Virus record (IMG/VR): IMGVR_UViG_3300044996_000126
Span: 1-43,581 of that record
Reading direction: 5' to 3' (one strand)
Source of the DNA: a virus
Length of the DNA: 43,581 nt
The translations under genes and the position numbers were made by a program. This document shows positions 7,786-43,479 of this stretch, one piece after another; within the stretch, counting starts at the first letter, position 1; every line of letters begins with the position of its first letter. The notes beneath the pieces are model-generated. The model did not search any database. It was not told the origin of the DNA and saw only the letters and a program-made list of their open reading frames with translations.

Positions 7786-10077
7786 CTACGGACAGCAGAA
7801 GTCAGTGAACGGGGCGTCATCATAAGGTATGAGGCGGCTATCCCAGTTCATCGGGAGGATGTTCGCGAGCGCCGACGCGGCCAGGGCACGAATGCCTTCG
7901 GGGTTCCAGCAGACCCAACCCGACTCGGAACGGGCGCTGCCAACCTCTGTCTCTTGATCGTGACGGAAGAGGTAGGGCATCTGTTCCTTGGGCTTGCGCC
8001 CTACCCAACGGTCGATACCGTTCACGGTGATGAGGTTCCAGACATAGCGCCCCGAGTTCTCCGGCATCCCTTGGAAGAGGAGGAAGACCTCATGGAAGCG
8101 TGGCTTCTGAGTCCCGAGGATCGCACGGCCAGAGGCGCGGAGTTCAAGCACCTCCCCCGGTCCGGCCAGGACAGAGAGGTCAAGGGTACTCTCGATAGGC
8201 CACTGTTGGTCTGCGGGCCACTGTGCGTTCCCGTCTGGAGAGATGAAGTCGTCCGCTCCGACCTCAACGATCTTCTCAGGGTCCTGCGCGAACTGGATGG
8301 CGTCCGCGACAACCTCCTGGCGGAGCACCAACCGAGTCGTTGCGTCGGGAGGGGTGCCGATGAGGAGTTCTCCGTAGGCACTCAACGGAACCACCAGTCG
8401 TGCGGGGTCAGTCGCGAGTTCGTGCCGGGTCAGCGCGGCGGCCATGATTGCGGGACGGCGCTGGAAGTCCGCGAGACGGTACCGTTCCACAAGGTCCTGA
8501 AACGGCATCTTCAGAGCCTTCAGGCGCGACGAATGCAGAGGGTCTGCATCTACCCCAACGTACCGCCGCAGGTAGATGAAGTCCACCGGCGCGTCTTCCT
8601 GCCGTACCGGCGTAAGGTCATCCGGCGGACCCTGCACTACCCACAAGCGGCTGAGCGCGTTGTGCGCCGTCTCCGACACTACGACTTCGGCCGCGTCCTC
8701 GGCCTCGCGTTCGTCCTCCACTACCCCCGCCTTGGCATCCTCGCACACCACCCTCCAGTCGCAACCAACGCCGGTCACATCATAGGCCGAGTCTCTCCCC
8801 CTGGCGAGCGCCTCCGTTTGCGTTGGTTCCTCGGAGAAGCGTACTGACGCAATCCGGCCCGAATGCGTCAATAGCGCAGAGAGCCTCTGTGCCCTTTCGC
8901 ACAACGGCTCCTCGTGCAAGTCCTCCCCGTCCAGGTGCAGGCAGTCGAAGGCGACAAACCGCAGGTCGGCATCGGACAGGTCCTTGCGACGGCTCAACGC
9001 ACGGCGTATCACCGAGGAGTCCAACGCTCCGAGAAGTTCGCCGTCCAGGACGAATGACTCGGCCTCAATCGCCCTCGCCGCCTCTGCGATTTGTCCGAGG
9101 AAGTGGGAGACGTTGTGCGTCCCGCCCTGATCGGCAAAGACCCACACCTGTTCGCCGTGCTTGTGCACCTGGGTTCTAACGCCACCGGCCAGTTCGCAGA
9201 ACAGGTCATCAGGCCCGCTCTCTCCCCGCAGCACCTTCTGGTACTCAACGTACTGCCCTGGACGTGCCGCACCGGCATCGTACCGGAACCACAATGGACA
9301 TGCGAGGTCAGACACGTCCCCTTCCCAGCGGACCAACCATGACCCGCGCGGCAACCTCAACAGGTCCTCTGGCGTCTCCAGGTAGACCGACTCTCCATCG
9401 GGCAGGAGGGCCGAGCGCTCAGACAACGGGCGCTTCCAGACTTGCTCGAAGCCGTCCACCAACACGTCAACAGGCACGAGTTCGCTGCCAACGTCGGCGA
9501 CGACCCAGATACCTCGTTGGCGGTCTTCGAGTCCGGCTGGAGCAGGGCAGGGTACCCCTCCGGTCTCGTTCAGCGCCCACTCCCCGTTGAGACAGTGGGC
9601 AATGAGCAGGCCATCGCCCAGCGGGTATGCAAGGGCGGGGAAGCGGAAGTTCCCTGACTCGCATACCGACCCAATCAGTACCGGCTCGCCAGGGACGAAC
9701 CCTCCCTCATCCTGCGAAGTCCTCGTCGTCCTCCGCACGAGACAGAGGTCATAGACCGGGACGCACTTCCCGTGCGGTTCGCCGGGCTCTATTCTCAACC
9801 CCTGTACCTGTCTACAGAGGTCAAGACGCCCCACCAGTTTCCCTGACGATTCGACAATCACCCCGTCCTCTACACGCAGAACGAGAGGGTATCTCCCCAA
9901 CGGTTCTTCGCCAGAGCCATCGTCCAGGCCGTCAAGCACCATGTGCTCGATACCAACCATTCCCATGAGACGCACGGCCAGACGGTGCAGTATACCGTCT
10001 GCCCGCGCGTGGGCAGCGTCGTGAGCCGCCACGGCCTCGGCGGTACCAAGGAACTCGACCGGAGTCTTCTCTGGCAA
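7786..10077 (-). CDS. Head-module protein with a degenerate ATP-dependent DNA ligase domain
   Basis: A 763-residue protein encoded between portal and capsid. Residues 270-402 read like the adenylation domain of archaeal-type ATP-dependent DNA ligases: VQ(V)HKHGEQVWVFADQGG-like spacing (303-320), FVLDGELLGAL (342-352), and FVAFDCLHLDGEDL followed by PLCERAQRLSALL (374-403). At motif I, where family members have KxDG, this protein has CELAGG (294-299), so the nucleotide-accepting lysine and aspartate are gone. The later lysine motifs are not recognisable. It is therefore probably not a ligase, but a virion or head-assembly protein that kept the fold. The flanking 1-270 and 410-763 are unassigned. 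TTG start with GGGAGGT upstream. Confidence 0.65.
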   Translation of the reverse strand: MPEKTPVEFLGTAEAVAAHDAAHARADGILHRLAVRLMGMVGIEHMVLDGLDDGSGEEPLGRYPLVLRVEDGVIVESSGKLVGRLDLCRQVQGLRIEPGEPHGKCVPVYDLCLVRRTTRTSQDEGGFVPGEPVLIGSVCESGNFRFPALAYPLGDGLLIAHCLNGEWALNETGGVPCPAPAGLEDRQRGIWVVADVGSELVPVDVLVDGFEQVWKRPLSERSALLPDGESVYLETPEDLLRLPRGSWLVRWEGDVSDLACPLWFRYDAGAARPGQYVEYQKVLRGESGPDDLFCELAGGVRTQVHKHGEQVWVFADQGGTHNVSHFLGQIAEAARAIEAESFVLDGELLGALDSSVIRRALSRRKDLSDADLRFVAFDCLHLDGEDLHEEPLCERAQRLSALLTHSGRIASVRFSEEPTQTEALARGRDSAYDVTGVGCDWRVVCEDAKAGVVEDEREAEDAAEVVVSETAHNALSRLWVVQGPPDDLTPVRQEDAPVDFIYLRRYVGVDADPLHSSRLKALKMPFQDLVERYRLADFQRRPAIMAAALTRHELATDPARLVVPLSAYGELLIGTPPDATTRLVLRQEVVADAIQFAQDPEKIVEVGADDFISPDGNAQWPADQQWPIESTLDLSVLAGPGEVLELRASGRAILGTQKPRFHEVFLLFQGMPENSGRYVWNLITVNGIDRWVGRKPKEQMPYLFRHDQETEVGSARSESGWVCWNPEGIRALAASALANILPMNWDSRLIPYDDAPFTDFCCP

Positions 10078-14497: not shown

Positions 14498-15520
14498 CTA
14501 CTCAACCCCCAACAGGCGCTTCTGGACGCGGACGTTGTAGTACAGGTCGTTTGGGAAGTCCGCGCACTCGCCAGCACGGATATGCTCCAGCATCTCGTCA
14601 AGCGCCGGGGTGATCCCGGTCGGGCATAGGAACCCGGCGTGCTGTAAGCGCGTGGCATCCATCGTGTAGTCTCTCCGGTCTGGTGTGCCGAGACTCTCCC
14701 GCACCATCTCTGCCTCGATCCCGCGTTCCTTCAGCAGAATCTGCATCCACCAAACAAGCTCGCTGATACGGTAGGGCTTGGTGCGGTTTGCCTCGTGGTG
14801 TGCGACGTTGAAGACCGGACAGGCATGTTGACAGGCCCACCACTTGTCGGTACGACTCTCGGCCAAGTCAAGCCACACGTTGGCGAGGTCCCCGACGTAG
14901 ACCAGCGGACGCCAGACCTCCCCTCCGCCCTGCGCCACCATGCGCCCTTCGTCCAATGCCGACTTCAAGAGGGCGTTGACGACCAGATCGTATCTCATGC
15001 GCGGGGACCAGCCGAAGACCGTTGCTTGCCGCAGGATGATGCACCGGAGACCACGCTCCATTGCCAGTTCGTTGAGCGCCTCCTCGGCCTTCACCTTCGA
15101 CTCCGCGTATAGCGACTGTGGGTTCAGGCGCGAGTCTTCGCAGGACAACTCGAACCAAGTTGATCCGTAGACGCTGGCGGTGCTCGCGAAGATCATCGGC
15201 GTATGCGTCGCGGCGCAGGCCTCGGCGATGGTCCGCGTCCCTCCGACGTTGACGCGGTAGGTGATCCTCTCGCTGATGTCGGCGGAGCCGTCGTTACTGA
15301 TCCCGCCGAGATGGAATGCCCATGCCACACCTTCGAGGTCGGAAGGCGTGACTTCGCAGAGGTCCGACTCGATGACCTCCGCACCAGCGACCGCGCTCTC
15401 GACCAGTGGAGTCTTGTAGTGGCCCAGGTCAAGCACCTTGACCTTGTGCCCTCGGTCCAACGCCTTCCGCGTCAGGACGGAGCCGATGTACCCTAGACCT
15501 CCGGTGATGAGTAGCTTCAA
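14498..15520 (-). CDS. NAD-dependent sugar-nucleotide epimerase/dehydratase
   Basis: A 340-residue extended short-chain dehydrogenase. It has the Rossmann motif TGGLGYIG (6-13), Ser in STASVYGS (113-120), and the catalytic YAESK (Tyr138, Lys142). These are the marks of GalE/RmlB-like enzymes that epimerise or dehydrate NDP-sugars. TTG start overlaps the stop of the glycosyltransferase upstream. With that enzyme, the radical SAM protein and the methyltransferases it forms a coupled sugar-modifying operon. The exact NDP-sugar is unknown. Confidence 0.9.
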   Translation of the reverse strand: MKLLITGGLGYIGSVLTRKALDRGHKVKVLDLGHYKTPLVESAVAGAEVIESDLCEVTPSDLEGVAWAFHLGGISNDGSADISERITYRVNVGGTRTIAEACAATHTPMIFASTASVYGSTWFELSCEDSRLNPQSLYAESKVKAEEALNELAMERGLRCIILRQATVFGWSPRMRYDLVVNALLKSALDEGRMVAQGGGEVWRPLVYVGDLANVWLDLAESRTDKWWACQHACPVFNVAHHEANRTKPYRISELVWWMQILLKERGIEAEMVRESLGTPDRRDYTMDATRLQHAGFLCPTGITPALDEMLEHIRAGECADFPNDLYYNVRVQKRLLGVE

Positions 15521-16488
15521 CGCCCACGCTCCTCAAGGCACTGTCGCAGTAGAAGGTCCCACTTGTCGCAGACGGCCTTCCTCGTGAATTGGCAACTGAG
15601 CTTCTTCGCTGCCTCGCCTATGCTCCTGCGGAACTTGGCATGCCGAAGTTGTTCGATGCCCTCCCGGAACTCGGTAGGCGTCACGGCCAACAGTCCCGTC
15701 TTCCCATGCTCGATGACCTCGCGATACTGAGGGAGACTCGACGCGAGACAGGGGAGCCCTAACGCCGAGTAGGACAGGACCTTGTGGCTACCCTTCGACC
15801 GCGTGAAGTGCGTGTCTGGCAGGATGACCAGCCCGCCGTGCGCCGTTGCGACCTCCCGCACCCATGTATCACGTTCCCAAACCACGAAGTCCACGGGAAC
15901 CGGCCACTGCGCGACGCGCTCGCGGTTGCTGCGATGGCGCGAATCTCTCTCCGGCATGATGATCCGCAGCCGAAAGTCCGGTATCGCCCCGAGTTCCATG
16001 ATGACCGGCTCGACGTACTGGAGGTTGTCGCCAAGGCCATGCCAGGACAAAACCAACGGCGAATACGGCAACTGAGCAGGTTCTGTCTGCCAGAACTCGT
16101 CCTCCAGTATCTCGGGCATCGCCGCGCAATTCGGGTTGACGCGCGAGTACAGCCGCTGCATGTGGCGCGTCGCCGTCACCACCATGTTCGCCGCCGCGAC
16201 GGTCTCGCGCTCATGCGGAATGTGGAAGATGGAGCCCTTCGTCAACAGGTCGTCGTTCTGCTCGAAGACGACATACTGCCCTCGCTCCCGGTGGCGGCGA
16301 ACCTCTGCCGGGTTGGCGATCCGTTGCAGGATGACCAACGGCGCGGTGCCATCGTCCTGGTGATCCACCTGCCAACCGAGACGCCGCAGACCGTCTGAGA
16401 CGAACAACCCTCGCCTGCGTCGCGTGGGTTCGTTGTCGTTCGGAGCCGGGTACAGTTTGAAGTACAGGTGCTTGCGAGCTTCAGGCAT
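15517..16488 (-). CDS. Glycosyltransferase, GT-B type (group 1-like)
   Basis: A 323-residue protein starting MPEARKHLYFKLY, with the ATG nested in the stop region of the radical SAM gene (8-base overlap). The C-terminal half has the sugar-nucleotide-binding layout of group 1 transferases: ILPDTHFTRSKGSHKVLSYSALGLPCLAS, then EVIEHGKTGLLA. The usual EX7E pair is not seen, since Lys/Ser occupy the first position. It probably transfers a sugar supplied by the neighbouring epimerase. The acceptor is unknown. Confidence 0.75.
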   Translation of the reverse strand: MPEARKHLYFKLYPAPNDNEPTRRRRGLFVSDGLRRLGWQVDHQDDGTAPLVILQRIANPAEVRRHRERGQYVVFEQNDDLLTKGSIFHIPHERETVAAANMVVTATRHMQRLYSRVNPNCAAMPEILEDEFWQTEPAQLPYSPLVLSWHGLGDNLQYVEPVIMELGAIPDFRLRIIMPERDSRHRSNRERVAQWPVPVDFVVWERDTWVREVATAHGGLVILPDTHFTRSKGSHKVLSYSALGLPCLASSLPQYREVIEHGKTGLLAVTPTEFREGIEQLRHAKFRRSIGEAAKKLSCQFTRKAVCDKWDLLLRQCLEERGR

Positions 16489-17731
16489 TGATCCTGTCCG
16501 CCTCCCGCAGGACGCCACGCCACTCGTCTTCAGAGCAATCCTCCAGCCCCATGCCCGCGCTCTGGTGGAAGTACTCCGACCAGTTCTCTGATAGTCCTCC
16601 GGCCAGCGCCTTCGCCAGCGCGTAAACTCGGGTACCCGGGTAGGGCGTCAATACCGAAATGTGGGGTTTGGCTCCAACCTGTTTGAGGTGCCTACCAAGG
16701 TTCAAGGTCGCCTCAAGTTCATGTGCGGTCTCTCCAGGGAATCCGATTAGCAGATATACAACACACCGAAGCCCTCTGCCGAGGGTTAGGCTGATCGTCC
16801 TTTCAATTTCGGTGTCCGTTACTCGCTTGCCGCTCAGTTCTCGCCAACGAGGACTCGCGCTCTCCAGCCCGATGTTCACACACCGGCACCCGCCTTCGAG
16901 CAGGGCGTCAACGAGTTCCTCGTCCACGTTCTGAAGCGCAGCGTCACAAACCCACTGGAAGCCCGTCTTCGCCAACTCGCGACAGACGGCCAGACCGTGC
17001 TTCCGTACCACGCCGAAGGAGTCGTCAATCACGCGGCCCTGCTTCGTTGTCAAGCATTCTACCTCCTCGCGGACATGTCCAGGGTCTCGCGTCCGCACCT
17101 GCTTGCCGAAGACGGTCGGTGCCGCGCAGTAGGAGCAGGCGTATGGGCACCCCCTCTGCGTCTGCACCATGCCGGTGATGTAGGGGCTGTAGCGTTCGCC
17201 GCCGATGACGCATCCCCTGTCGGGCACCACCGCGTCAAGGTCTGTGACAAGCGGGGGGCGCACGATCTCGGTCCCGAAGTCCTCGAAGGCCGCCGCCGCC
17301 GCCGGATGGTCCCCCTCTCCGACGACCACGGCATCAAAGACCTTGGCCTCTTCTTCGGGCAGCAGACTCGGATGAACCCCTCCCGCCACTACTCGAATGC
17401 GTCGTTGCCGCGCGAAGGCCGCGAACTCCCGCGCCGTCTGTGCATCAACCGTGCGGTAGCTGATCCCCACAACCTCCGGCGCAAAGTCGTCAAGCGCCTT
17501 CAGGAACGGAAGGTACACGCTCTCGTCCATCCCGCGCTGCGCCGCAACCCCAAGACGCACCGGCCCGGACGGGATAGGCTGCGGGTTGCTTACGTCGTCG
17601 TGGTAGATGAGAACCTCGTGCCCACGCCCCTTCAACATCGCCGCTACCAACATCGGCCCCAAGGGGTAGGTGCAATAGACCGAGTTCGCGTAGAGACGGG
17701 CGAATGGAGGCTGGACAATCAGAACGCGCAT
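16481..17731 (-). CDS. B12-binding radical SAM enzyme
   Basis: A 416-residue protein with an N-terminal cobalamin-binding-like Rossmann domain (about 1-160; LIVQPPF, YPLGPMLVAAMLKGRGHEV, VVAGGVHPSLLPEE) and a radical SAM core with the iron-sulphur motif RGCPYACSYC (Cys195, Cys199, Cys202). Later core stretches are VNIGLESASPR and YLLIGFPGET. Family members methylate unreactive carbons or rearrange sugars, lipids or natural products. Its coupling to a methyltransferase upstream and a glycosyltransferase downstream suggests methylation or rearrangement of a sugar. This is unusual cargo for a phage. Confidence 0.9.
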   Translation of the reverse strand: MRVLIVQPPFARLYANSVYCTYPLGPMLVAAMLKGRGHEVLIYHDDVSNPQPIPSGPVRLGVAAQRGMDESVYLPFLKALDDFAPEVVGISYRTVDAQTAREFAAFARQRRIRVVAGGVHPSLLPEEEAKVFDAVVVGEGDHPAAAAAFEDFGTEIVRPPLVTDLDAVVPDRGCVIGGERYSPYITGMVQTQRGCPYACSYCAAPTVFGKQVRTRDPGHVREEVECLTTKQGRVIDDSFGVVRKHGLAVCRELAKTGFQWVCDAALQNVDEELVDALLEGGCRCVNIGLESASPRWRELSGKRVTDTEIERTISLTLGRGLRCVVYLLIGFPGETAHELEATLNLGRHLKQVGAKPHISVLTPYPGTRVYALAKALAGGLSENWSEYFHQSAGMGLEDCSEDEWRGVLREADRINA

Positions 17732-18123
17732 GGTTGATAGGTTCCCTTGACCTGTCCGGCGATACTTCCGATTCGGATGAACACTGCAGCCTGCCCTGGT
17801 GCGAGATGAGAGCCAACTTCGTCAAGCACATCCTCGGCGGTCTTGAATGTCCGAACGTGACGCGGGTTGCGATCTTTGCCTTCCGCCAGCGGGATAGAGA
17901 AGACCAACAGGCCGAAGTCCGACAGCCGCTCGCGTATCTGCCCCAAGAGTCGCTCTCCCGCTTCCTCCTCCAGGTGTTCGTATACGTCCGTCATCACTGC
18001 CACGTCGAACGGGCCTTCCGGCAGGTCGTCCTTGGCCAAGTCGGCCTCGATGTACTCGACCTCCGGCGCACGATAGAGCGCCTCCGCTAGACGGATTGAT
18101 GATGGTCTGTCAACCGCGACCAC
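17719..18123 (-). CDS. C-terminal half of a split SAM methyltransferase
   Basis: A 134-residue reading frame starting at GTG directly after an in-frame TGA (18124-18126). It carries the second half of a class I methyltransferase fold: VVAVDRPSS (end of beta 2), EYIEADL, FDVAVMTDVYEHL (motif IV/post region) and GLLVFSIPL. It is in the same frame as the piece at 18124-18399, so together they would make a normal 226-residue enzyme. It could be made by TGA readthrough, by re-initiation at the GTG, or be one part of a broken gene. Its end overlaps the radical SAM start. Confidence 0.7.
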   Translation of the reverse strand: MVAVDRPSSIRLAEALYRAPEVEYIEADLAKDDLPEGPFDVAVMTDVYEHLEEEAGERLLGQIRERLSDFGLLVFSIPLAEGKDRNPRHVRTFKTAEDVLDEVGSHLAPGQAAVFIRIGSIAGQVKGTYQPCAF

Positions 18124-18399
18124 TCACCCCTTCGTCTTCAGACGGTAGAGCCGCGTCGCAAACCCGCAACCGCAGCCGATGTCCAGTACGTTGTCGTGTC
18201 GGCCGATGTACTGGAGCACTTCGCGGTAGTGGCCGAAGTGACTGGCGATGTTTCCTATCCCGCCCGGGCTAAAGACGTTTGCGGTGTCTGCGTAGATGAC
18301 GAAGCACTCGGGGACCATGCACTCTCCGCCAGCAGCATTGTCTACCAGTGCCTGCAATTCGTCGGCGGTGATTTCCAGGGCGTCGCCCAACACTCGCAT
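18124..18399 (-). CDS. N-terminal half of a split SAM methyltransferase
   Basis: A 91-residue frame ending LKTKG at an in-frame TGA. It holds the SAM-binding motif I of a class I methyltransferase (VLDIGCGCGFATRLY, residues 71-85) but stops before the acidic residue of beta 2, which lies in the next frame. ATG overlaps the stop of the upstream methyltransferase (TGATG). Without its continuation it cannot fold as a complete enzyme. See the finding on the in-frame TGA. Confidence 0.7.
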   Translation of the reverse strand: MRVLGDALEITADELQALVDNAAGGECMVPECFVIYADTANVFSPGGIGNIASHFGHYREVLQYIGRHDNVLDIGCGCGFATRLYRLKTKG

Positions 18400-19052
18400 C
18401 AGACAGGATACCCCCCGTGGAAGAGAGACGAATCAATCCCAGGCGTCTCGTGCGGCGCGATCTTCTTTGGGCGACACGTCACCCACAACTGCTTCCGCAC
18501 CCCGTTGAGGAGACGACCGCAGTCCTCGTCTTCCATGTTCGGGAACCACAACTTCGCCCGCGCCAGCCCGTCTGTGTCAAACTCCCACCGAAGCTCCTCA
18601 ACCGTGAACAGCGCATCAAAGACCCAGTTGATCGCGAAGAATGACTCCGTGATCTGGTGCCTATGATTCACTTCGTAAGACAGCGGGTGCTGCCACGCGG
18701 GGACGACGAACCTCACCCGCGCCTCGGGTTGGCAGACGCGGTAGACTTCCGCGACGAAGTACTCCGGGTCGTCTACGTGCTCAAGAAAGTGCGAGCAGTA
18801 TACCTCCCTGACGCAATTGTCATCCAACGGGATGCCAAGGTTCAGGTCACAGAACACGTCGGCCTTGGCGTCCGGGTGCTGGTCGAAGTGGAGATACTCA
18901 TTCCCGAACTCATCAATCCCGTGGGGGAACTTCCCGCATCCCAGGTCAATACATAGGTCCTTCTCTCCGACGCGGACCCGCTCCGTCACGAGGTTCTCGG
19001 CAACCCTCTGTGTCTTCAGGGCCTCATAGTAGTGGTTTGTCTGGCGATTCAT
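18399..19052 (-). CDS. Class I SAM-dependent methyltransferase
   Basis: A 217-residue protein with motif I LCIDLGCGKFPHGID (33-47), an acidic position after beta 2 (YLHFDQHP), CDLNLGIPLDDNCVREVYCSHFLEHV (motif II/post region) and a strand near RVRFVVPAW. This is the Methyltransf_11/23 layout found in many polysaccharide operons. ATG overlaps the glycosyltransferase stop (ATGA). Methylation of a sugar is the likely role because of the surrounding glycosyltransferase, epimerase and radical SAM genes. Confidence 0.8.
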   Translation of the reverse strand: MNRQTNHYYEALKTQRVAENLVTERVRVGEKDLCIDLGCGKFPHGIDEFGNEYLHFDQHPDAKADVFCDLNLGIPLDDNCVREVYCSHFLEHVDDPEYFVAEVYRVCQPEARVRFVVPAWQHPLSYEVNHRHQITESFFAINWVFDALFTVEELRWEFDTDGLARAKLWFPNMEDEDCGRLLNGVRKQLWVTCRPKKIAPHETPGIDSSLFHGGYPV

Positions 19053-20416
19053 CGCTCGCCCCCGATCTTCAGCAGCAACTTCTCGAAGAAGTGCGCGGTT
19101 CTCTGTGGGGTACGGTGTCGCGCAGTTCTCAGTCCTTCGCGGATGAGACTCCGGCGAAGGCCATCATCGGCATAGACTCGCAGGATGGCTTCCGCCGCCG
19201 TTCTGGGGTCGTCCCCATCTACGGCCAGCCCGTTCTTTCCGGGCTCCAGGTACTCGTCTGTACCGACTGGCGTCACAACCGGGATGCACCCGCAGGCCAT
19301 AGCCTCCAACGGCGGCAATGGCGACCCCTCAATCTTGCTCCCCGAAAGGTAGAAGTCGGCCCCTGAGTAGAAGAGTGCCATCTCCTCGCGCGTCGGGTTA
19401 CAGAGGAACGTATCGACTCCGGCGTGGGAGAAGCGGCGGAACCCAGCCATCGCCAGCTTCACGTCCGGCCTCTGTTGGCGCACACGCTCCATGACCTGCA
19501 GCGGGAAGAGGTCGTTCTTGAACCAGACCCCACGGTAGATCGCGCAGACAGTGCCACGTAGATTGAAGTCGTTGATCCTGGGGGAGAAGTCGATACCGTC
19601 TACTCCGTTGCCCCCGATGTCCCCCGCGAGGTGTGTGCCGTAGTTCCTGGCGCAGGACTCCGCGACGTGACGACTAACGGAAATGTATGACAACCTCGGT
19701 TGAGTGAATGCCCGCACCGCGTCAGGTCGCGATCTCTCCTCTGGTTTCATCCATGTGGGCTCGTCGCTTTGTAGGAACCCGACCTTCCTCCCTGACACTG
19801 CCGCTTCTGCAACCTCGTTGATGGTCGGCCAGAAGGTCCCGATCACGAAGTCCGCGTCTTCGATTCCGCGAGACAAGCGCACGGGGATTGGTGCGAGGTC
19901 CGTTGCAGTCAGCAGACAATTCGGCGTTGAGATGGTGACGGTGTGCCCACGTTGCAGGAGGTACCCGCAGATCGACAGAATGACGCGCGTCCCTCCGTTG
20001 AGTTCGGTCAGCCCGTGCAGTCGGAAGGTCACAGAGAAGGGGCGGTGCGCGCGCTCGATGGGATCAAACTCATCGGTGAGGCAGGGGGACACGTCGCGGT
20101 TGAACTCCCGCAACCAATGCTCCGAAGGGAGGTCGGGCCAGATGGCCGAACGGACCTCCTTAGCGAAGGCCAATACCTCCTGTGACCGATCAATGGACGC
20201 GGGTGGCATCCCCGGCGTCGCTATGCGGCCATCGTGCCGCGCAAGGTCTTCCTCTGTCGCGAACTCGAAGGACGCAAGCAGCACGAGGTTCTTAGCCTGG
20301 AAGTCGGGTACCTCTTTGATCTCGCCCGGCTGGAAGGTCATGTTGCCGACCGAATGCTTGACGCGCCCGACATTCTTGACCTTCAGGAACCGCGTGAGCT
20401 TGCTCTCTCCCGCCAA
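19049..20416 (-). CDS. Glycosyltransferase family 4-type with N-terminal extension
   Basis: A 455-residue protein. The last 350 residues form a GT-B transferase: LNGGTRVILSICGYLLQRGHTV in the acceptor domain, and KIEGSPLPPLEAMACGC with an EX7E pair, followed by GTDEYLEPGKNGL, in the donor domain. The first 100 residues (VGNMTFQPGEIKEVPDFQA) resemble a small beta domain and could bind the acceptor or a virion protein. TTG start behind GGGAGG. It follows a virion protein gene and leads a chain of coupled methyltransferase/sugar genes. Confidence 0.85.
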   Translation of the reverse strand: MAGESKLTRFLKVKNVGRVKHSVGNMTFQPGEIKEVPDFQAKNLVLLASFEFATEEDLARHDGRIATPGMPPASIDRSQEVLAFAKEVRSAIWPDLPSEHWLREFNRDVSPCLTDEFDPIERAHRPFSVTFRLHGLTELNGGTRVILSICGYLLQRGHTVTISTPNCLLTATDLAPIPVRLSRGIEDADFVIGTFWPTINEVAEAAVSGRKVGFLQSDEPTWMKPEERSRPDAVRAFTQPRLSYISVSRHVAESCARNYGTHLAGDIGGNGVDGIDFSPRINDFNLRGTVCAIYRGVWFKNDLFPLQVMERVRQQRPDVKLAMAGFRRFSHAGVDTFLCNPTREEMALFYSGADFYLSGSKIEGSPLPPLEAMACGCIPVVTPVGTDEYLEPGKNGLAVDGDDPRTAAEAILRVYADDGLRRSLIREGLRTARHRTPQRTAHFFEKLLLKIGGER

Positions 20417-25232: not shown

Positions 25233-25252
25233 CCCCCGACCGGAGCCGGGGG
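25233..25252 (-). terminator. Hairpin terminator closing the TIGR-Tas-like unit
   Basis: An inverted repeat CCCCCG (25233-25238) / CGGGGG (25247-25252) with an 8-base loop is followed on the minus strand by TCTTCTGCTT. It lies just beyond the downstream repeat array and directly before the next promoter, so it isolates the array-gene-array transcript. Confidence 0.65.
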
Positions 25253-25279
25253 CCTCTACTTTGTGGCGCTACCTTAGTG

Positions 25280-25666
25280 CGGCGCTCTCTACAGGTACGG
25301 CTCGCTCTAGCTCATCGGTACTCTCGCAGCACTCGGCTCGCTCTTCCAGAGCGGTACTCTCTGGGCCGAAGGCTCGCTTTACCTCCTCGTCACCATCGCA
25401 TAGCCCGGATCGTTCTACAGACGCGGTACTCTCTGACATCACGACTCGCTCAACAGCCTCGGTACTCCCGACGAGTTCGGCTCGCTATGCTGCATCGGCA
25501 CCCTCTCAAGGAACGGATCGCTTTACACTCTCGGTACGCTCATGGTCGGCGGCTCGCTCGGATACATCGGCACTCTCCTCACTAGCGGCTCGCTTCACCA
25601 TTGCGGTACTATCCAATCATCCGGCTCGCTTAGCTACTACGGCACTCTTCCGACACACGACTCACC
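25280..25666 (-). repeat. Downstream TIGR-like array (alternating 9-base repeats and 9-base spacers, 36-base period)
   Basis: Eleven copies each of two repeats alternate with a perfect 36-base period. Plus-strand consensus A is CGGCTCGCT, starting at 25298, 25334, 25370 and every 36 bases to 25658. Consensus B is CGGTACTCT or CGGCACTCT, starting at 25280 and every 36 bases to 25640. Between them are unique 9-base spacers; no spacer recurs. On the transcribed minus strand the repeats read AGCGAGCCG and AGAGT(A/G)CCG. Known TIGR arrays are cut into 36-nt dual-spacer tigRNAs, the same length. The A repeat nearest the gene (25658-25666) contains the gene's stop codon. A degenerate A-like copy (25262-25270) marks the far end. 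Confidence 0.85.
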
Positions 25667-26738
25667 CTTCAACGACCGGCCAGTTCGGGATCGCGACCAA
25701 ACCCACATGCCCAAGATGCTCGATGCTGAACGGCCTCGGCGGCTCCTTCCCGAAGTGCTCGACATAGGCCACATGATGCCAGTGGCTCAGGAAGAGCTTC
25801 ACTGCCCATCGCCGCGCCCGGAGGTCGATCCTCCCGTCCGGCAGCCTCCCTTCGCGGTAGGTTGCGGCCTGGGCGTGTTTCGGAGTCCGCTCCAACGTGA
25901 CGGCCGCCTGACCGGCGAAGGCCCCTTCCGCGTTACGCGAAATCTCCTGGGCCTTTCGCTCCAGATACAGCCGCCCATACACGCAATCCTTGTGCCCACT
26001 GAGCTTGACGAAGCAGTCCCCAGCTTTCCAGCACAAGACCTTCAGGTCGTGGTTCCAGGGCTTCCGCGAGGCGACCTTGACAAGCTGCGCGACGGTCTGC
26101 GGCGGAGCAGACCCGTCCTTGCCCGGCAGCGCCATCAGCCGATGGAACGTATCGGCGCGGCGGTTGCAGGCCAGGGCCACGGTCTCGATGTCGCCCTCCT
26201 TCAGCGGGCCGGAGGCACGACCGAGGGCATCCTTCACGACTCCTGCCGCGCCCTCCTTTCCCAGCCACTCGCAGGTCGGGTCCAGACCGGCGAAGCGCCA
26301 GATTGCCCCGGCAGTCGGGGCCTTCTCGATGTCGATGTGCGCCATGAGCCCAGCCGAAATGACCGGCCCAACTCCGACGAGGCTCTTAGACCAACGCCCC
26401 ACCAGACGGCTGCTGCTCCAGTGGTCGAGCAGCGTCTTCGTCTGCGACTCCAGCGTGGCGAGGTTGCCCTTGAGCCATGCGAGGACGTTCGTCTCCGCCC
26501 CCGACCGCGCCTGATTCGCGACGGCCTTGCGGAACTCCTGAAGCTGGTAGTAGGCATCGACGAGGAAGCGGGCGTCCTCCCCGATGAGGTCCGCCGCGTC
26601 GGCCTTGAGTGCTGCTGTCAGCCGCGCGGCGCGGTCCCGGTCAACGAAGTCTCGGAACTCCTCGGCTATTGTTTCCGCTGTCTCTGGTTTGTGGGATGTC
26701 TCTGTGTCCTTTGTCTCTGTGTCCTTTGTCTCTGTCAT
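25662..26738 (-). CDS. tasA: TIGR-associated (Tas) protein without nuclease domain, IS110/Nop-like
   Basis: A 358-residue protein. Residues 1-20 are a Thr/Glu/Lys repeat tail and 20-118 are helical. Residues 119-154 (SLVGVGPVISAGLMAHI, then WRFAGLDP) match the helix-hairpin-helix region of the IS110 transposase C-terminal domain (Transposase_20), which is related to the Nop domain of box C/D proteins. The C-terminal helix RRWAVKLFLSHWHHVAYVEHFG (309-330) is basic-aromatic. No DEDD/RuvC or HNH residues are visible, so it should bind an RNA guide and DNA without cutting, as TasA is described to do. ATG 26736-26738 follows GGGAGG; an earlier GTG lies in array-like sequence. It is flanked on both sides by the repeat arrays and likely shares their transcript. 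Annotation pipelines would call it a transposase. Confidence 0.8.
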   Translation of the reverse strand: MTETKDTETKDTETSHKPETAETIAEEFRDFVDRDRAARLTAALKADAADLIGEDARFLVDAYYQLQEFRKAVANQARSGAETNVLAWLKGNLATLESQTKTLLDHWSSSRLVGRWSKSLVGVGPVISAGLMAHIDIEKAPTAGAIWRFAGLDPTCEWLGKEGAAGVVKDALGRASGPLKEGDIETVALACNRRADTFHRLMALPGKDGSAPPQTVAQLVKVASRKPWNHDLKVLCWKAGDCFVKLSGHKDCVYGRLYLERKAQEISRNAEGAFAGQAAVTLERTPKHAQAATYREGRLPDGRIDLRARRWAVKLFLSHWHHVAYVEHFGKEPPRPFSIEHLGHVGLVAIPNWPVVEG

Positions 26739-26778
26739 GTGGGCTGCCTCCCGTTTGTTTGTTGGCACTCTGGCTGTT

Positions 26779-27130
26779 CGGAACTCTCACTAGTCACGGC
26801 TCGCTTACTTGTCTCGGTACTTTCTGAGGCCACGGCTCGCTCTTGCTTCTCGGCACTTTCCTCTGTCAAAGGCTCGCTCCGAGCCAACGGTACCCTCGAG
26901 CCTGTCGGCTCGCTCGTGCAACGCGGCACTCTCTCGGTTGAAGGCTCGCTTCCCATCCTTGGCACTCTCCCTAGCCACGGCTCGCTCTGTTGAAGCGGTA
27001 CTCTCCTCGGATATGGCTCGCTTCTCGTCCTCGGTATGCTTTGGTTCGGTGGCTCGCTCTGCCTCTTCGATACCGTTCTCTACGACGGCTCGCTTTAGCA
27101 CCTCGGCACTCTCGATGAACGCGGCTGCGA
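26779..27130 (-). repeat. Upstream TIGR-like array (same repeats as the downstream array)
   Basis: Ten B repeats (26779, 26815, 26851, 26888, 26924, 26960, 26996, 27032, 27068, 27104) alternate with nine A repeats (26797, 26833, 26870, 26906, 26942, 26978, 27014, 27050, 27086) and one degenerate A (27122-27130, CGGCTGCGA). Spacers are 9 bases and all different from each other and from the downstream array, except that one spacer (26860-26869) has 10 bases, giving a single 37-base unit. A second B-like sequence out of register (26763-26771) lies at the gene-proximal edge. The array sits between the promoter/hairpin and the tas gene, in the leader of its message. Confidence 0.85.
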
Positions 27131-27154
27131 ATCAAAATGCCCCACGTCCGGTGG

Positions 27155-27218
27155 CTGAGGCAGCAGCCTACCGTGCGCGGGGCAAAGCGCGAACGACGGG
27201 TAGTGACTGCTGCCTCAG
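27155..27218 (-). ncRNA. Long hairpin at the 5' end of the array transcript
   Basis: A 12-base perfect inverted repeat (CTGAGGCAGCAG at 27155-27166, complement at 27207-27218) encloses a second pair CTACC (27168-27172) / GGTAG (27199-27203) and an inner GCGC pairing. The promoter at 27228-27256 would start RNA at about 27221, so the hairpin is the first thing transcribed. It could protect the array RNA, attenuate transcription or be a structural RNA of the system. Confidence 0.6.
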
Positions 27219-27227
27219 TCAAGAACC

Positions 27228-27256
27228 AGGATACCACACCTGCGGCCAGTTGTCAA
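27228..27256 (-). promoter_or_regulatory. Sigma70-type promoter of the TIGR-Tas-like unit
   Basis: TTGACA (complement of 27251-27256), 17-base spacer, TATCCT (complement of 27228-27233). It precedes the hairpin, the upstream array, the tas gene and the downstream array. No other promoter was seen before the terminator at 25233-25252. Confidence 0.85.
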
Positions 27257-31822: not shown

Positions 31823-34800
31823 TTACCGGCCTCCTCCGCGCAATGCAGGGATAGCCGACTGGAATGCGCTTGTCACCTCGTGCCGGATCAACCTCGCCCC
31901 CTGCCCCTGCGTGATCTCGTACTTGAACGACTCCTTCACCCCGTTGCCGAAGTTGAAGTTGAAGGTTTGGTACTGGACAATGTTCCCCGGTCCGCCCGGC
32001 ATTCCCATGAGGGTTCCGATGCTCGGAGTGCCCGTCGCCAACGCGAACGATGCTGGTGACACGTAGCGGTTGATCGTCTCCATCGGAGCGCCGATGATCT
32101 TGGCGATGATCCCATCGAAGGCCCCCAGCACAGAGGTGTTGTCCTTCAGCGCTTCCGTGTTCTTCTGCGTGGCGTCGGTGCCGTCCTGCAACTCATGCGC
32201 GATGGCGTCGGGGTCCTGCTCGCCCTTGAAGAACATGCCATCGCCGCCGCCCGGAAGAGCCCCGCCAGCCCATGCCTGCTTCAAGCCACGCTGGAACGAA
32301 CCGATGATGTTGTTGGCCCCGCCAGCCACCGCGCTTGCTACCGGCAAACCCATAGCCAGCCCGCCCCCGCGAATGTCACGCATCTTCCCAAGCCAACCTT
32401 GATACCCCGACTTCGCCGAGGACCACACACCCCTGAAGACGTCGGTTCCAGCGGCGCTCAACATCTCCTTGCGCTGTTCCTCGGTAGCCGTTTGCCACTC
32501 TGGAGACCCCATCACTTCCATTCTGCGTTGCTGCTCGCGGACGCGAGCAGCAAGATGTTGCTCATCATAGACAGCACGGAATCTGCTTGAGGAATTGGAT
32601 AGTATGTCTTTGGCCCAGTCCGTACCCTCAATGCTGGCCGCCTCCCTCAATTGCTTTGAGCCATAGCGCACCAACGATTCCGGGTTGTAGCCGAAGAAGA
32701 ACTTCCAGAGGTCGTTACCGCTCATCCATGTGGCGATAATATCCCCCATGTCCGCAACGCCGTACATCACCACCTGTCTCGCCTGACTCATCGCCTCGGC
32801 AATCAACGCAACGAAAGTTGTCCCCCACTCCTCCGTAGCCTGCGTCATGTCTTTGCTGAAGAGGTTGGCGAGAAGCTGTTTGAGACCGGCGATCCCACCG
32901 GCGATCAATGCGGTAGCCTGCTCAACAGACCACACTACGAAGTCCCAAAACGACGACCACAGCATCCGCAGCGGACTGTTCTCGTCCGCGACAGACCTGA
33001 ACGCATACTCAAAGACCGCGACTACCCGCACGATCACGTCCGCCGCCCTCCGCATGTACCCCACCAGCATGTCGATGAACTGTGGGAACGCCTTGCGAAT
33101 GTCCACCATCTTCAGCAGGCCGGTCGCCAGACGCGCGACGGCCCACGCCGCCTCCCCGATGGCGTTTGCCAACGCCTTCACCTGCGGCGTATTGCCCAGC
33201 GAGTCCAACCAGTTTGACAACGTGCCCAACAGCCACTTCAGCGGAGCCCGCACCTTGTCCCCGATAGTGATCCCGAAGTCTCGCAACGTAGACTTGAAGC
33301 GGTCCCACTGGCCCGACACCGTGTTCAGCATGATGTCGGACTGCTTCTGCGCCTGATTGGTGCCGGTGATAGCCTGGGTCAGCCGGTCGTGTTCGACCAC
33401 ACCCTGCTTGACCAGAATGTTGAGGGCGATAAGACCGTTGCGGTTACGGAAGGTCGCGATCTCGGTCGGGTCGAGGCCAAGGCTAACGAGGTTCTGTAGC
33501 GCCTTGCGGAACCCGACGACGGCCGGGTTCACTGTGGCGTAGGCAACTCCGTGAGACTCGATGACCTTCTTGAACTCCTCGGTCGGAGAGATCAAGCGCA
33601 CGATCAAGCCGAGCAGCGCAGAGCCAGCCTGCTCCCCCGACAGACCCGCGTTGTAGAACTGCGAGAGGGTCCCGACCAACTCCTCCATGTTCATCTTCAC
33701 GAGGTTGGCCGCCTGCGCCGCCTTCGGCATCGAAGTGAAGAGTTTCTCGAAGGTCGCCGCCGATTGCGCGTTGGCCGCCGCAAGCAGATTGGCGACGCGC
33801 GTGGCCTCCTCGGCTGGCCGCTGCCACACCATCAGCATCCGCGCGACAACCTCCGCCGAACGCTCCGTGTCGGCGCGACCTCCCGTCTCTCCAGACGCCG
33901 ACCGCGCCAGCAACGTCACGCCGGGCAACATCGCCCCCGTCTGCCGCGTCGAGTACCCGAAGGAGGCAAGCTGGAAGGCGGCCTGCGCGATCTCCTCCGC
34001 TGCCATGCCGAACCGCTTCCCGATCTCGCGGACCGAAGCGGCAAGCTCGGGCATCTGTTCCAACGTCTTTCCGACAACCCCGCCCACACGGGCCATCGCC
34101 GTCTCAAACCCAATCGCGACCTTCGTCGCCAGGGCCAGACCTCCAGCCAATACCCCGCCAATCGCAGCCCCCAACTTCAGCGCACCAGCTACCACGTTCA
34201 CCCACGTCTTTATCAACGTCACGAAGGCGTTGATGACGAAGCGAACCGCGTCGCCAACCCCACGCATGAAGTCCATCAGAATCCAGCCCCAGTATCGGAA
34301 CATACGGACGATAGAGGTGACCCCGAAGGCCGCTCGCAGGGCTCTGTTCCATAGGCTGTCATTGGCCCTCAACCGAGAGTCCGTGCTCATCTTACGGGCG
34401 TCGGAACCTATGTCGCGGTAGGCTTGGCCGAGTTCACGAAGGGCCTTTGTCTGTTCCTGTTCGCGCTTGACGGTGTTCTTGATCGCCTGCGCCGCCTTCA
34501 TCTGCGCCTGATATGCCGCTTTGGCCCCGGCGATCTGCGCGTCAATGGACTTTCTCTGATCTTGCGTTAGCCACATATAGCCCTTGCGAATCTCGTGTTG
34601 CATCGCGACTTCGGCGCGGCCGGTCCTCCTCTGAACTGTATCCCGCGCGTTCGTCCGTGCGATAGAAGCATCGGCATCTCTCCGTTCCTGCGCGGAGGCC
34701 CTCCGCTTCGCCATCTGGTAGCTGGCATTGTCGGCGTTCTGCTTCTTGTTGGCGTCAGAAAGGCGCTTCTGCCTAACCTTTTCGGCCTGCTCCATCTGGC

Positions 34801-35236
34801 GCATGGCCGCCTCCACGCGCGCATTCTCTTCCTTCTGCTCCTTGGCCCGTTGGGCGGCAATCCGGTGCGCCTCGGCATAGGCGCGTTGCTCCTCGCGCGC
34901 ACTCAGCCGACGGGCCTCGGCCCCCCAGGCGATGGCCTTCTTGATGTTCGCCTGCTCCCATTTCCACTGCGACTCTGTAATACCACGGTGCTGCTTCACG
35001 GCCCACTGGTGATTCGCGATTCGATTCTTCATCTCCTCGCGTTGCCGCTTGGTAAGTGCAGCCCACCACGCCGCCTCCGGGCCAAGGTCTCCAGGCGGCT
35101 TCTTCCCCCCGCCCCCCGCCTTCGCGATCTCCGCCCCCGCATTCTTCGCCATCCGGCGGAGTTCTTCGATACCGGCCCGCGCCTTCGACAACTCGGCGAC
35201 GAACTCGATGACTACACGGTCCCTCTCGTCTGCCAC
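31823..35236 (-). CDS. Tape measure protein
   Basis: A 1,137-residue protein that sets tail length; at about 1.5 angstrom per residue the tail would be near 170 nm. Residues 1-330 are Lys/Arg/Ala/Glu-rich coiled coil. A membrane-like stretch is near 355-375 (LKLGAAIGGVLAGGLALATKVAIG). The TP901-type core follows (about 375-680: FETAMARVGGVVGKTLEQMPE; SFGYSTRQTGAML; LSQFYNAGLSGEQAGSALL; NTVSGQWDRFKSTLRDFG). Start GTG 35234-35236. It lies after the frameshifted chaperone, the standard order in long-tailed phages. Confidence 0.95.
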   Translation of the reverse strand: MADERDRVVIEFVAELSKARAGIEELRRMAKNAGAEIAKAGGGGKKPPGDLGPEAAWWAALTKRQREEMKNRIANHQWAVKQHRGITESQWKWEQANIKKAIAWGAEARRLSAREEQRAYAEAHRIAAQRAKEQKEENARVEAAMRQMEQAEKVRQKRLSDANKKQNADNASYQMAKRRASAQERRDADASIARTNARDTVQRRTGRAEVAMQHEIRKGYMWLTQDQRKSIDAQIAGAKAAYQAQMKAAQAIKNTVKREQEQTKALRELGQAYRDIGSDARKMSTDSRLRANDSLWNRALRAAFGVTSIVRMFRYWGWILMDFMRGVGDAVRFVINAFVTLIKTWVNVVAGALKLGAAIGGVLAGGLALATKVAIGFETAMARVGGVVGKTLEQMPELAASVREIGKRFGMAAEEIAQAAFQLASFGYSTRQTGAMLPGVTLLARSASGETGGRADTERSAEVVARMLMVWQRPAEEATRVANLLAAANAQSAATFEKLFTSMPKAAQAANLVKMNMEELVGTLSQFYNAGLSGEQAGSALLGLIVRLISPTEEFKKVIESHGVAYATVNPAVVGFRKALQNLVSLGLDPTEIATFRNRNGLIALNILVKQGVVEHDRLTQAITGTNQAQKQSDIMLNTVSGQWDRFKSTLRDFGITIGDKVRAPLKWLLGTLSNWLDSLGNTPQVKALANAIGEAAWAVARLATGLLKMVDIRKAFPQFIDMLVGYMRRAADVIVRVVAVFEYAFRSVADENSPLRMLWSSFWDFVVWSVEQATALIAGGIAGLKQLLANLFSKDMTQATEEWGTTFVALIAEAMSQARQVVMYGVADMGDIIATWMSGNDLWKFFFGYNPESLVRYGSKQLREAASIEGTDWAKDILSNSSSRFRAVYDEQHLAARVREQQRRMEVMGSPEWQTATEEQRKEMLSAAGTDVFRGVWSSAKSGYQGWLGKMRDIRGGGLAMGLPVASAVAGGANNIIGSFQRGLKQAWAGGALPGGGDGMFFKGEQDPDAIAHELQDGTDATQKNTEALKDNTSVLGAFDGIIAKIIGAPMETINRYVSPASFALATGTPSIGTLMGMPGGPGNIVQYQTFNFNFGNGVKESFKYEITQGQGARLIRHEVTSAFQSAIPALRGGGR

Positions 35237-42815: not shown

Positions 42816-42893
42816 TGGTACCAGCGGCGCGATTCGAACGCGCACTGTCCCGCTCTTGAGGCGGTCGCCTCTGCCGAGTTGGGCTACGCTGGC
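42816..42893 (-). tRNA. tRNA-Leu(CAA), short variable arm
   Basis: Cloverleaf on the minus strand with acceptor GCCAGCG/CGCTGGT, anticodon loop CTCAAGA, T-arm GCGCG-TTCGAAT-CGCGC, and encoded ACCA. The variable region is only 5 bases, not the long arm of bacterial leucine tRNAs. The outer pair of the anticodon stem is A-G. Confidence 0.8.
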
Positions 42894-42896
42894 GAC

Positions 42897-42974
42897 TGGT
42901 AGGACGGGCAGGATTCGAACCTGCACTGACACGGCCCTGAACCGTGTGCCTCTGCCAAGTTGGGCTACCGTCCC
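42897..42974 (-). tRNA. tRNA-Leu(CAG), short variable arm
   Basis: Acceptor GGGACGG/CCGTCCT, anticodon loop TTCAGGG, T-arm GCAGG-TTCGAAT-CCTGC, and encoded ACCA. It is closely similar in D arm and variable region to its two neighbours. The variable region is 5 bases, so it is class I. Confidence 0.8.
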
Positions 42975-42978
42975 ATAT

Positions 42979-43056
42979 TGGTGCAGGCGAGAGGATTCGA
43001 ACCTCCACTGAACAGGCCCTCGACCTGCTCCCTCTGCCAAGTTGGGGTACGCCTGC
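42979..43056 (-). tRNA. tRNA-Leu(GAG), short variable arm, C33
   Basis: Acceptor GCAGGCG/CGCCTGC (perfect), anticodon loop TCGAGGG, T-arm GGAGG-TTCGAAT-CCTCT, and encoded ACCA. Position 33, normally U, is C. It shares its body with the two other leucine tRNAs. Confidence 0.75.
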
Positions 43057-43058
43057 TT

Positions 43059-43144
43059 TGGTCCGAGAGGAGGGAGTCGAACCCCCACAGCCGAAGCGGG
43101 TGATCTACAGTCACTTGGGCTCCCCACATGCCCAATGCCCTCGG
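43059..43144 (-). tRNA. tRNA-Tyr(GTA) with long variable arm
   Basis: Anticodon loop CTGTAGA in a GTGA/TCAC stem, variable arm CCG-CTTC-GGC, T-arm GGGGG-TTCGACT-CCCTC, and encoded ACCA. The acceptor stem reads CCGAGGG/CTCTCGG, giving a C1-G72 pair rather than the G1-C72 pair of bacterial tyrosine tRNAs. There are two extra bases before the D stem. Confidence 0.7.
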
Positions 43145-43146
43145 AT

Positions 43147-43221
43147 TGGTGTGCCCTCCGCGAATCGAACGCGGGTCTGCTGCTCTTCGGACAGCCGCTA
43201 CACCGTCTCAGCTAAGGACAC
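43147..43221 (-). tRNA. tRNA-Phe(GAA), C33
   Basis: Acceptor GTGTCCT/AGGGCAC, anticodon stem GCTGT/GCAGC, loop CCGAAGA, T-arm CCGCG-TTCGATT-CGCGG, and encoded ACCA. C replaces the usual U at position 33. Confidence 0.75.
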
Positions 43222-43223
43222 AT

Positions 43224-43312
43224 TGGCGGAGAGTGGAGGATTTGAACCTCCGACCCCGTAGGGCGCACTCCTTAGCAGGGAGGCCCGTTAGACCGGACTC
43301 CGGCAACTCTCC
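43224..43312 (-). tRNA. tRNA-Ser(GCT)
   Basis: Class II tRNA with acceptor GGAGAGT/ACTCTCC, anticodon loop CTGCTAA, long variable arm, T-arm GGAGG-TTCAAAT-CCTCC, discriminator G73 and encoded CCA. All features are normal for serine. Confidence 0.9.
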
Positions 43313-43314
43313 GT

Positions 43315-43403
43315 TGGAGGAAGGGACAGGGATCGAACCTGCAAGGCCGTAGCTCGTCGGTTTTCAAGACCGATGCCGTCGCCATCCGTCGGCTTGCCCT
43401 TCC
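43315..43403 (-). tRNA. tRNA-Ser(TGA)
   Basis: Class II tRNA with acceptor GGAAGGG/CCCTTCC, anticodon stem TCGGT/ACCGA, loop CTTGAAA, T-arm GCAGG-TTCGATC-CCTGT, and encoded CCA. The discriminator base is U73 instead of the G73 usual in serine tRNAs. Confidence 0.8.
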
Positions 43404-43405
43404 GA

Positions 43406-43479
43406 TGGGAGCGGGAGCGAGATTCGAACTCGCGATCACGGGGTATGAGCCCGCCGCCTTGCCTCTTGGCTATCCCGCA
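43406..43479 (-). tRNA. tRNA-Met(CAT), with initiator-like traits
   Basis: Acceptor TGCGGGA/TCCCGCT with a mismatched first pair (U1-U72), anticodon stem GCGGG/CCCGT with three G-C pairs next to the loop CTCATAC, T-arm GCGAG-TTCGAAT-CTCGC, and CCCA end. The unpaired 1-72 position and the GGG/CCC pairs are traits of initiator tRNA. The D stem is of elongator type. Confidence 0.8.

What the first reader, a model, noticed from the sequence alone, without database searches (positions are those of the whole stretch)
25233..27256. TIGR-Tas-like RNA-guided system with a nuclease-less effector in a phage tail region
Seen: two arrays of alternating 9-base repeats (CGGCTCGCT and CGGTACTCT/CGGCACTCT on the plus strand) and 9-base unique spacers, with a 36-base period, flanking a 358-residue protein whose residues 119-154 match the IS110 transposase helix-hairpin-helix (Nop-like) region and which lacks RuvC/DEDD or HNH residues. 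Known: TIGR-Tas systems, described in phages and parasitic bacteria, use TIGR arrays processed to 36-nt dual-spacer tigRNAs and Nop-domain Tas proteins. TasA lacks a nuclease, while TasH and TasR carry HNH and RuvC. Inferred: this is a TasA-type system giving programmable DNA binding without cutting, perhaps silencing competing phages, plasmids or host genes.
Basis: partly seen in the sequence, partly recalled or inferred. Interest (0 to 1): 0.95.

Follow-up and report, generated by a model that had tools for sequence, protein, structure and literature searches.

The report
Phage TIGR-TasA guide system, 21 guides
A bacterial virus carries a small RNA-guided DNA-binding system of the recently described TIGR-Tas kind, a cutter-less protein flanked by two arrays of 21 guide RNAs, and comparison with its relatives shows that such guides are inherited as pairs and replaced quickly while their targets are still unknown.

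Summary
On the minus strand lie, in order: a near-consensus sigma-70 promoter, a leader that can fold two ways, an array of 10 guide units, a 358-residue Nop-domain protein, an array of 11 units, and a terminator hairpin. A profile of the protein and 45 relatives finds solved TasR (7e-23) and TasH (7e-10) ahead of IS110 recombinases. The predicted fold (pLDDT 91) is all-helical, with no HNH or RuvC domain, so it is TasA-type. Across 55 distinct edge/loop consensuses the box C/D pair covaries in both repeats and the extra pair only in the edge repeat, as in the TasR structure. The edge repeat nearly equals that of Salicola phage CGphi29 TasH, whose 36-nt guide RNAs are proven. Correction: the register is 10-base repeats and 8-base spacers. 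New, from relatives: spacers A and B stay paired across the loop repeat (94/133) but not the edge repeat (27/138), guide sets turn over faster than the gene, and an internal mini-domain comes and goes. Guides match neither their own nor related phage genomes above chance; targets and function remain unknown. New member of a known kind.

The parts
27228..27256 (-). sigma-70-type promoter TTGACA-17-TATCCT with a TG before the -10 box; the likely start of the array 2 - tas - array 1 transcript
   Evidence: 10 of 12 consensus matches; 1 found, 0.2 expected in shuffles
27131..27222 (-). leader with two mutually exclusive folds: a terminator-like hairpin followed by UUUUGAUU (27137-27184), or a long helix (27152-27166 with 27207-27221); attenuator-like, function inferred
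   Evidence: z -3.3; -43.3 versus -40.6 kcal/mol
26761..27130 (-). TIGR array 2: 10 tigRNA units, edge RAGCGAGCCG, loop GAGAGTRCCG; begins and ends in truncated edge repeats
25665..26738 (-). tasA: 358-residue Nop-domain protein without nuclease (an in-frame upstream GTG would give 368 residues)
   Evidence: TasR 7e-23, TasH 7e-10; pLDDT 91, all helical; only TasR and TasH below E 0.001
26052..26276 (-). optional ~69-residue mini-domain inserted in the Nop region (residues ~158-227); present in 20 of 46 aligned proteins, replaced by exactly 7 residues in the other 26; folds alone at pLDDT 92
25262..25667 (-). TIGR array 1: 11 tigRNA units; the first truncated edge repeat overlaps the tasA stop codon
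25231..25253 (-). intrinsic terminator hairpin ending the transcript
   Evidence: -32.2 kcal/mol over the 61 bases folded, z -3.9; the plus strand folds only at z -0.8

Best explanation
The stretch is a dual-repeat TIGR-TasA system in a tailed phage. One minus-strand transcript runs from the promoter at 27256-27228 through array 2, tasA and array 1 to the terminator at 25253-25231 (inferred from the sequence). By homology to systems proven in Faure et al. 2025 (PMC12045711), Tas and a host RNase cut it inside each edge repeat into 36-nt tigRNAs (half edge, spacer A, loop, spacer B, half edge). A TasA dimer holds each tigRNA by the box C/D-like pairs of edge and loop repeats. Spacer A pairs with one DNA strand and spacer B with the other at adjacent half-sites, i.e. 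a target reading 5'-A-rc(B)-3' of 16 bp with a gap of 0-2 bp. Having no HNH or RuvC domain, the complex binds, unwinds and probably bends DNA without cutting it, blocking transcription or replication of whatever the 21 guides match. The guides most likely act in trans: they match neither their own nor related phage genomes above chance. Shown here: the arrays, covariation, protein family and fold, absence of a nuclease domain, pairwise inheritance and fast turnover of guides in relatives. Inferred: expression, processing, DNA binding, silencing, targets.
For: Arrays, promoter and terminator on one strand. TasR 7e-23, TasH 7e-10, IS621 2e-5 by profile. Foldseek: only TasR and TasH chains at E <= 0.001, best 1.9e-5. 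Model all-helical at pLDDT 91. 78 of 98 fetched loci carry a well-formed 36-base array. Pairing across 55 consensuses: edge 3-8 51/55 versus 33.5 shuffled, edge 4-7 54/55 versus 41.0, loop 3-8 39/55 versus 28.1, loop 4-7 not above chance; last base of edge and loop the same in 51/55 versus 32, matching the TasR structure. Nearly the same edge repeat and 8-base spacers in Salicola phage CGphi29 TasH. A-B kept across the loop repeat 94/133, across the edge repeat 27/138. Self-target counts not above controls.
Against: No RNA data. The window is one linear metagenomic record with no known host. Targets were sought and not found, so the silencing role rests on analogy. The shuffle tests ignore the relatedness of the sequences. 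Some units in the window are degenerate (a1_8), which may mean partial decay.
Confidence: 0.85

Rival explanations
1. A TIGR-TasA whose job is DNA architecture or recombination (an RNA-guided aid to a phage integrase, or to replication or segregation), not silencing of competitors.
For: The TasR complex bends DNA by about 180 degrees, and the original paper proposes integrase help and a ParB link for TasA. Large arrays are kept in long phage genomes.
Against: Such a role predicts conserved target sites in the phage's own genome or host; guides are not enriched in their own contigs, guide sets turn over quickly, and no ParB_N domain is found in the window.
Confidence: 0.15
2. An IS110-family transposase with its bridge RNA or decayed repeats, not a Tas protein.
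For: Weak Pfam match to Transposase_20; the PHROG family is labelled 'transposase'.
Against: No N-terminal DEDD/RuvC domain; Foldseek E for IS621 0.25 versus 1.9e-5 for TasR; IS110 elements have one bridge RNA, not arrays of units.
Confidence: 0.02
3. The repeats are coding repeats of a repetitive protein, or chance periodicity.
For: 36 is a multiple of 3, and part of array 2 is open in one frame for about 90 codons.
Against: Array 1 has 10, 8 and 4 stops in its three frames; array 2 has a frame-shifting extra base and stops in every frame. Repeats covary as RNA pairs across relatives.
Confidence: 0.01
4. A decaying system: the genes remain but the arrays are no longer used.
For: Unit a1_8 is degenerate, some edge repeats have lost the inner pair (AGCGATCCG), one spacer is a base too long.
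Against: Most of the 21 edge repeats keep the consensus core AGCGAGCC, the open reading frame is intact, and promoter and terminator are in place.
Confidence: 0.08

Closest known systems
TIGR-TasH of Salicola phage CGphi29 (SpTIGR; PDB 21kl, 9w04 and others)
   Same: Edge repeat AAGCGAGCCA versus RAGCGAGCCG here, 8-base spacers, 36-base units, array next to the Nop-domain gene, tailed phage; sequence and fold match
   Different: SpTasH has an N-terminal HNH nuclease; the window protein has none. The loop repeat differs (AAGACAACCA).
TIGR-TasR (PDB 9mty)
   Same: Best profile hit (7e-23) over coiled coil, helix-hairpin-helix and C-terminal box C/D-binding region; best Foldseek hit among solved structures
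   Different: TasR has an N-terminal RuvC nuclease and 9-base spacers with UG...CCA boxes; here AG...CCR boxes and 8-base spacers, no nuclease.
TIGR-TasA (Flavonifractor plautii FpTIGR, and TasA loci with a tasParB gene, Faure et al. 2025)
   Same: Solo Nop-domain protein with flanking dual-repeat arrays; the tasParB loci also have 10-base repeats (PMC12045711)
   Different: No ParB-like gene in the window; the window protein carries an extra ~69-residue mini-domain. FpTasA itself was not at hand for alignment; FpTIGR has 9-base spacers.
IS110/IS621 RNA-guided recombinases
   Same: Related Nop-like RNA-binding region (IS621 1.7e-5 by profile)
   Different: IS110 has a DEDD/RuvC domain and a single bridge RNA; neither is present here.

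Membership tests
TIGR-Tas (dual-repeat type) | Array of two alternating 8-12-base repeats with ~8-9-base spacers, 36-base unit | tested here: met
TIGR-Tas (dual-repeat type) | Nop-domain Tas protein next to the array | tested here: met
   profile; fold
TIGR-Tas (dual-repeat type) | Arrays begin and end in truncated edge repeats; terminator downstream | tested here: met
TIGR-Tas (dual-repeat type) | Box C/D pair in edge and loop repeats, further pair in the edge only, boxes covarying between edge and loop | tested here: met
   over 55 distinct consensuses including the window's; shuffles do not correct for relatedness
TIGR-Tas (dual-repeat type) | Processing to 36-nt tigRNAs bound by Tas | not testable with these tools
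   no RNA data; shown for a near-identical edge repeat in SpTIGR (PMC12045711)
TIGR-Tas (dual-repeat type) | Spacers A and B act in tandem on opposite DNA strands | tested here: inconclusive
   no target found; indirect support from pairwise inheritance of A and B
TasA subtype | Solo Nop domain, no HNH or RuvC nuclease | tested here: met
   all-helical model and no nuclease family hit; alignment to compact ~285-residue relatives leaves no room for one
TasH subtype | N-terminal HNH nuclease | tested here: not met
TasR subtype | N-terminal RuvC domain | tested here: not met
TasA-TasParB operons | parB-like gene in the operon | tested here: not met
   no ParB_N match in the window; the record is a fragment
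IS110 transposase | DEDD/RuvC catalytic domain plus a bridge RNA | tested here: not met
Box C/D snoRNP (Nop56/58, Nop5) | Fibrillarin-recruiting N-terminal domain, L7Ae K-turn partner | tested here: not met
   no N-terminal domain in the model; no snoRNP protein among sequence or fold hits. L7Ae itself was not searched.

The most novel reading that the evidence does not exclude
TIGR-TasA arrays in phages form a fast-evolving guide repertoire in which each spacer A-loop-spacer B unit is the heritable module, gained, lost and traded between related phages without any adaptation enzyme, while the Tas protein gains and loses an internal mini-domain that changes how the bound DNA is handled. That would make TasA an evolving, non-cutting counterpart of CRISPR carried by phages against rivals outside their own lineage.
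Probability: 0.35. Interest if true: 0.75.

Novelty: new member of a known kind. Interest (0 to 1): 0.5.

Why it matters
TIGR-Tas was described only in 2025; what TasA does, what its guides target and how arrays change are open questions. This locus adds a clear case with 21 guides in a phage structural region. Its relatives (316 stretches in IMG/VR) give data on two of those questions: guides are inherited as A-B pairs, and arrays turn over by whole units while tas stays 95-97% identical. A compact nuclease-free guide protein of a family that needs no flanking target motif would also interest people building DNA-binding tools.

Tried and rejected
Self-targets in the window: best matches to A+rc(B) average 13.5 of 18, shuffled pairings 13.7. 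Self-targets on 20 records including the window: 129/8/0 hits at 14/15/16 of 16, controls 170/14/0 and 147/11/1. Exact targets in 2.3 Mb of related phage DNA: 4 after removing three search-derived hits, 3.9 expected. IMG/VR scan of one of the most widely shared guide pairs: 3 unrelated hits. Two window guides against IMG/VR: 44 and 11 contigs. Guide a2_6 hits the STECN motif of a conserved ~750-residue protein in 12 contigs, but other guides show no clear excess there over control orientations, so I treat it as a conserved-motif coincidence and only a weak lead. One Halomonas prophage guide against 90 genomes of its genus: none. A ParB partner: none in the window. The idea that the inserted mini-domain is a helix-turn-helix: only weak Lac repressor/KorB/Xre-like hits and no fold match, so not claimed. 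IS110 element and coding repeats were rejected (see rivals).

Full report
OBSERVATION. The window is one IMG/VR virus record of 43,581 bases, linear, i.e. probably a fragment. All relevant features lie on the minus strand. Array 2 (27130 down to about 26761) has 10 units, array 1 (25667 down to about 25262) has 11. Identity at lag 36 over 288 bases is 0.56, at most 0.42 for ten other lags; no other place in the window scores above shuffled sequence. [quoted passage not shown] the other (AGAGTRCCG) is the loop repeat. The last base of spacer A is G in 18 of 21 units, and in relatives the G is part of the repeat, so the register is 10-base repeats and 8-base spacers. A sigma-70 promoter (TTGACA-17-TATCCT) precedes array 2 and a terminator hairpin follows array 1. 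Array 1 has stops in all three minus frames.

PROTEIN. The 358-residue product has a sub-threshold Pfam hit to the IS110 family and matches PHROG 4285, labelled 'transposase' (3e-31). By single sequence its best solved relatives are TasR (9e-7) and TasH (4e-6); with a 46-sequence profile TasR 7e-23, TasH 7e-10, IS621 2e-5. AlphaFold2 gives an all-helical model at pLDDT 91, and the only PDB chains at E <= 0.001 are TasR and TasH. There is no HNH or RuvC domain; compact relatives of about 285 residues align over the whole Nop part. It is TasA-type.

RELATIVES AND REPEATS. 316 IMG/VR stretches and 15 genome stretches encode relatives; 78 of 98 fetched loci have a well-formed 36-base array. Over 55 distinct edge/loop consensuses, edge positions 3-8 pair in 51 (shuffled 33.5) and 4-7 in 54 (41.0); loop 3-8 in 39 (28.1) while loop 4-7 does not pair; the last base is the same in edge and loop in 51 (32). 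This is the pattern of the TasR-tigRNA structure: a box C/D pair in both repeats, one more pair in the edge only, boxes covarying between edge and loop (PMC12045711). The shuffles ignore relatedness. As a positive control, the Salicola phage CGphi29 TasH array (proven 36-nt guides, 16-nt spacer total in the paper) reads AAGCGAGCCA - 8 - AAGACAACCA - 8.

HOW THE ARRAYS EVOLVE (relatives, not the window itself). Between different phages, a shared spacer A keeps the same spacer B across the loop repeat in 94 of 133 cases, whereas a shared B keeps the same next A across the edge repeat in 27 of 138. So the A-loop-B unit is what is inherited, as expected if the two spacers work in tandem. Phages whose tas genes are 95-97% identical share only part of their guides (for example 5 of about 25 between L013 and L014, 12 of about 20 between L039 and L044), largely in conserved order. 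Most change is by whole units: 141 unit indels against 97 aligned units, while retained spacers differ at 40/1408 bases and repeats at 46/1940. The spacer figure counts only units with at most 4 differences and is biased low, and the compared pairs overlap.

OPTIONAL DOMAIN. Between residues 158 and 227 the window protein carries a mini-domain. In 46 aligned proteins this stretch is either 7 residues (26 rows) or 55-80 (20 rows), and on the tree the trait changes about 12 times, at least 5 on supported branches (the insert's own columns were left in, which should favour fewer changes). The inserts are alike and the window's folds alone at pLDDT 92, but nothing in the PDB clearly resembles it. 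It may alter handling of the unwound DNA; this is a guess.

TARGETS. From the published cut geometry (8-nt 3' overhangs, C-5 rule) I derived the target as A-rc(B), gap 0-2; this is my inference. No excess over controls was seen in the window, in long records of 19 relatives plus the window, or across 2.3 Mb of related phages. Searches of IMG/VR with three guides and of 90 Halomonas-genus genomes with one gave nothing convincing. The guides therefore do not look self-directed, at least within the fragments at hand, and the true targets are unknown.

CONTEXT. Tail genes flank the locus (tape measure at 31823-35236). A record that shares the 1121-residue neighbour (54% identical) has no Tas protein or array, so the system looks like an optional cassette. 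A 7-kb contig from another sample has an identical terminase region.

VERDICT. A TIGR-TasA system: a new member of a known kind, well supported as to identity, unproven as to function.

Noticed in passing
27131-27222 (-): The leader between promoter and array 2 can fold as a strong terminator-like hairpin followed by UUUUGAUU or as an exclusive long helix (-43.3 versus -40.6 kcal/mol), which looks like an attenuator controlling the guide transcript.
   Followed up: partly
42816-43479 (-): Eight tRNA genes in tandem (Leu x3, Tyr, Phe, Ser x2, Met), typical of a large phage genome.
   Followed up: no
window 26052-26276, and 19 other Tas proteins (alignment A3): A homologous mini-domain is present or absent at one exact point of the Nop region, scattered over the tree.
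   Followed up: partly
L102-L107 (contig of L002), L176-L178 (contig of L058): TIGR arrays occur not only next to tas but also about 5-25 kb away in the same phage record.
   Followed up: partly
L185, L191, L203, L205, L208, L210, L214, L215 and others: Guide a2_6 of the window matches exactly, without gap, the STECN motif of a conserved ~750-residue protein in 12 phage contigs; not above chance when other guides are used as control.
   Followed up: partly
4851-7628 (-): One 925-residue open frame matches both a head maturation protease and a major head protein family, a fused protease-capsid gene.
   Followed up: no
16481-17731 (-): B12-binding radical SAM protein amid glycosyltransferases and a nucleotide-sugar epimerase (14498-20416).
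   Followed up: no
7786-10077 (-): Large protein with an ATP-dependent DNA ligase domain among the head genes.
   Followed up: no
26697-26726 (-): Exact 15-base tandem duplication near the start of tasA (KDTETKDTET), so the N-terminus may be variable.
   Followed up: no
L183: A 7-kb contig from another sample encodes proteins 100% identical to window 7.8-14.7 kb: the same phage elsewhere.
   Followed up: partly
L089 10001-10798: A TIGR-TasA prophage in a Halomonas isolate sits just upstream of a dUTPase-like gene (my reading of the sequence); a possibly cultivable host for experiments.
   Followed up: partly
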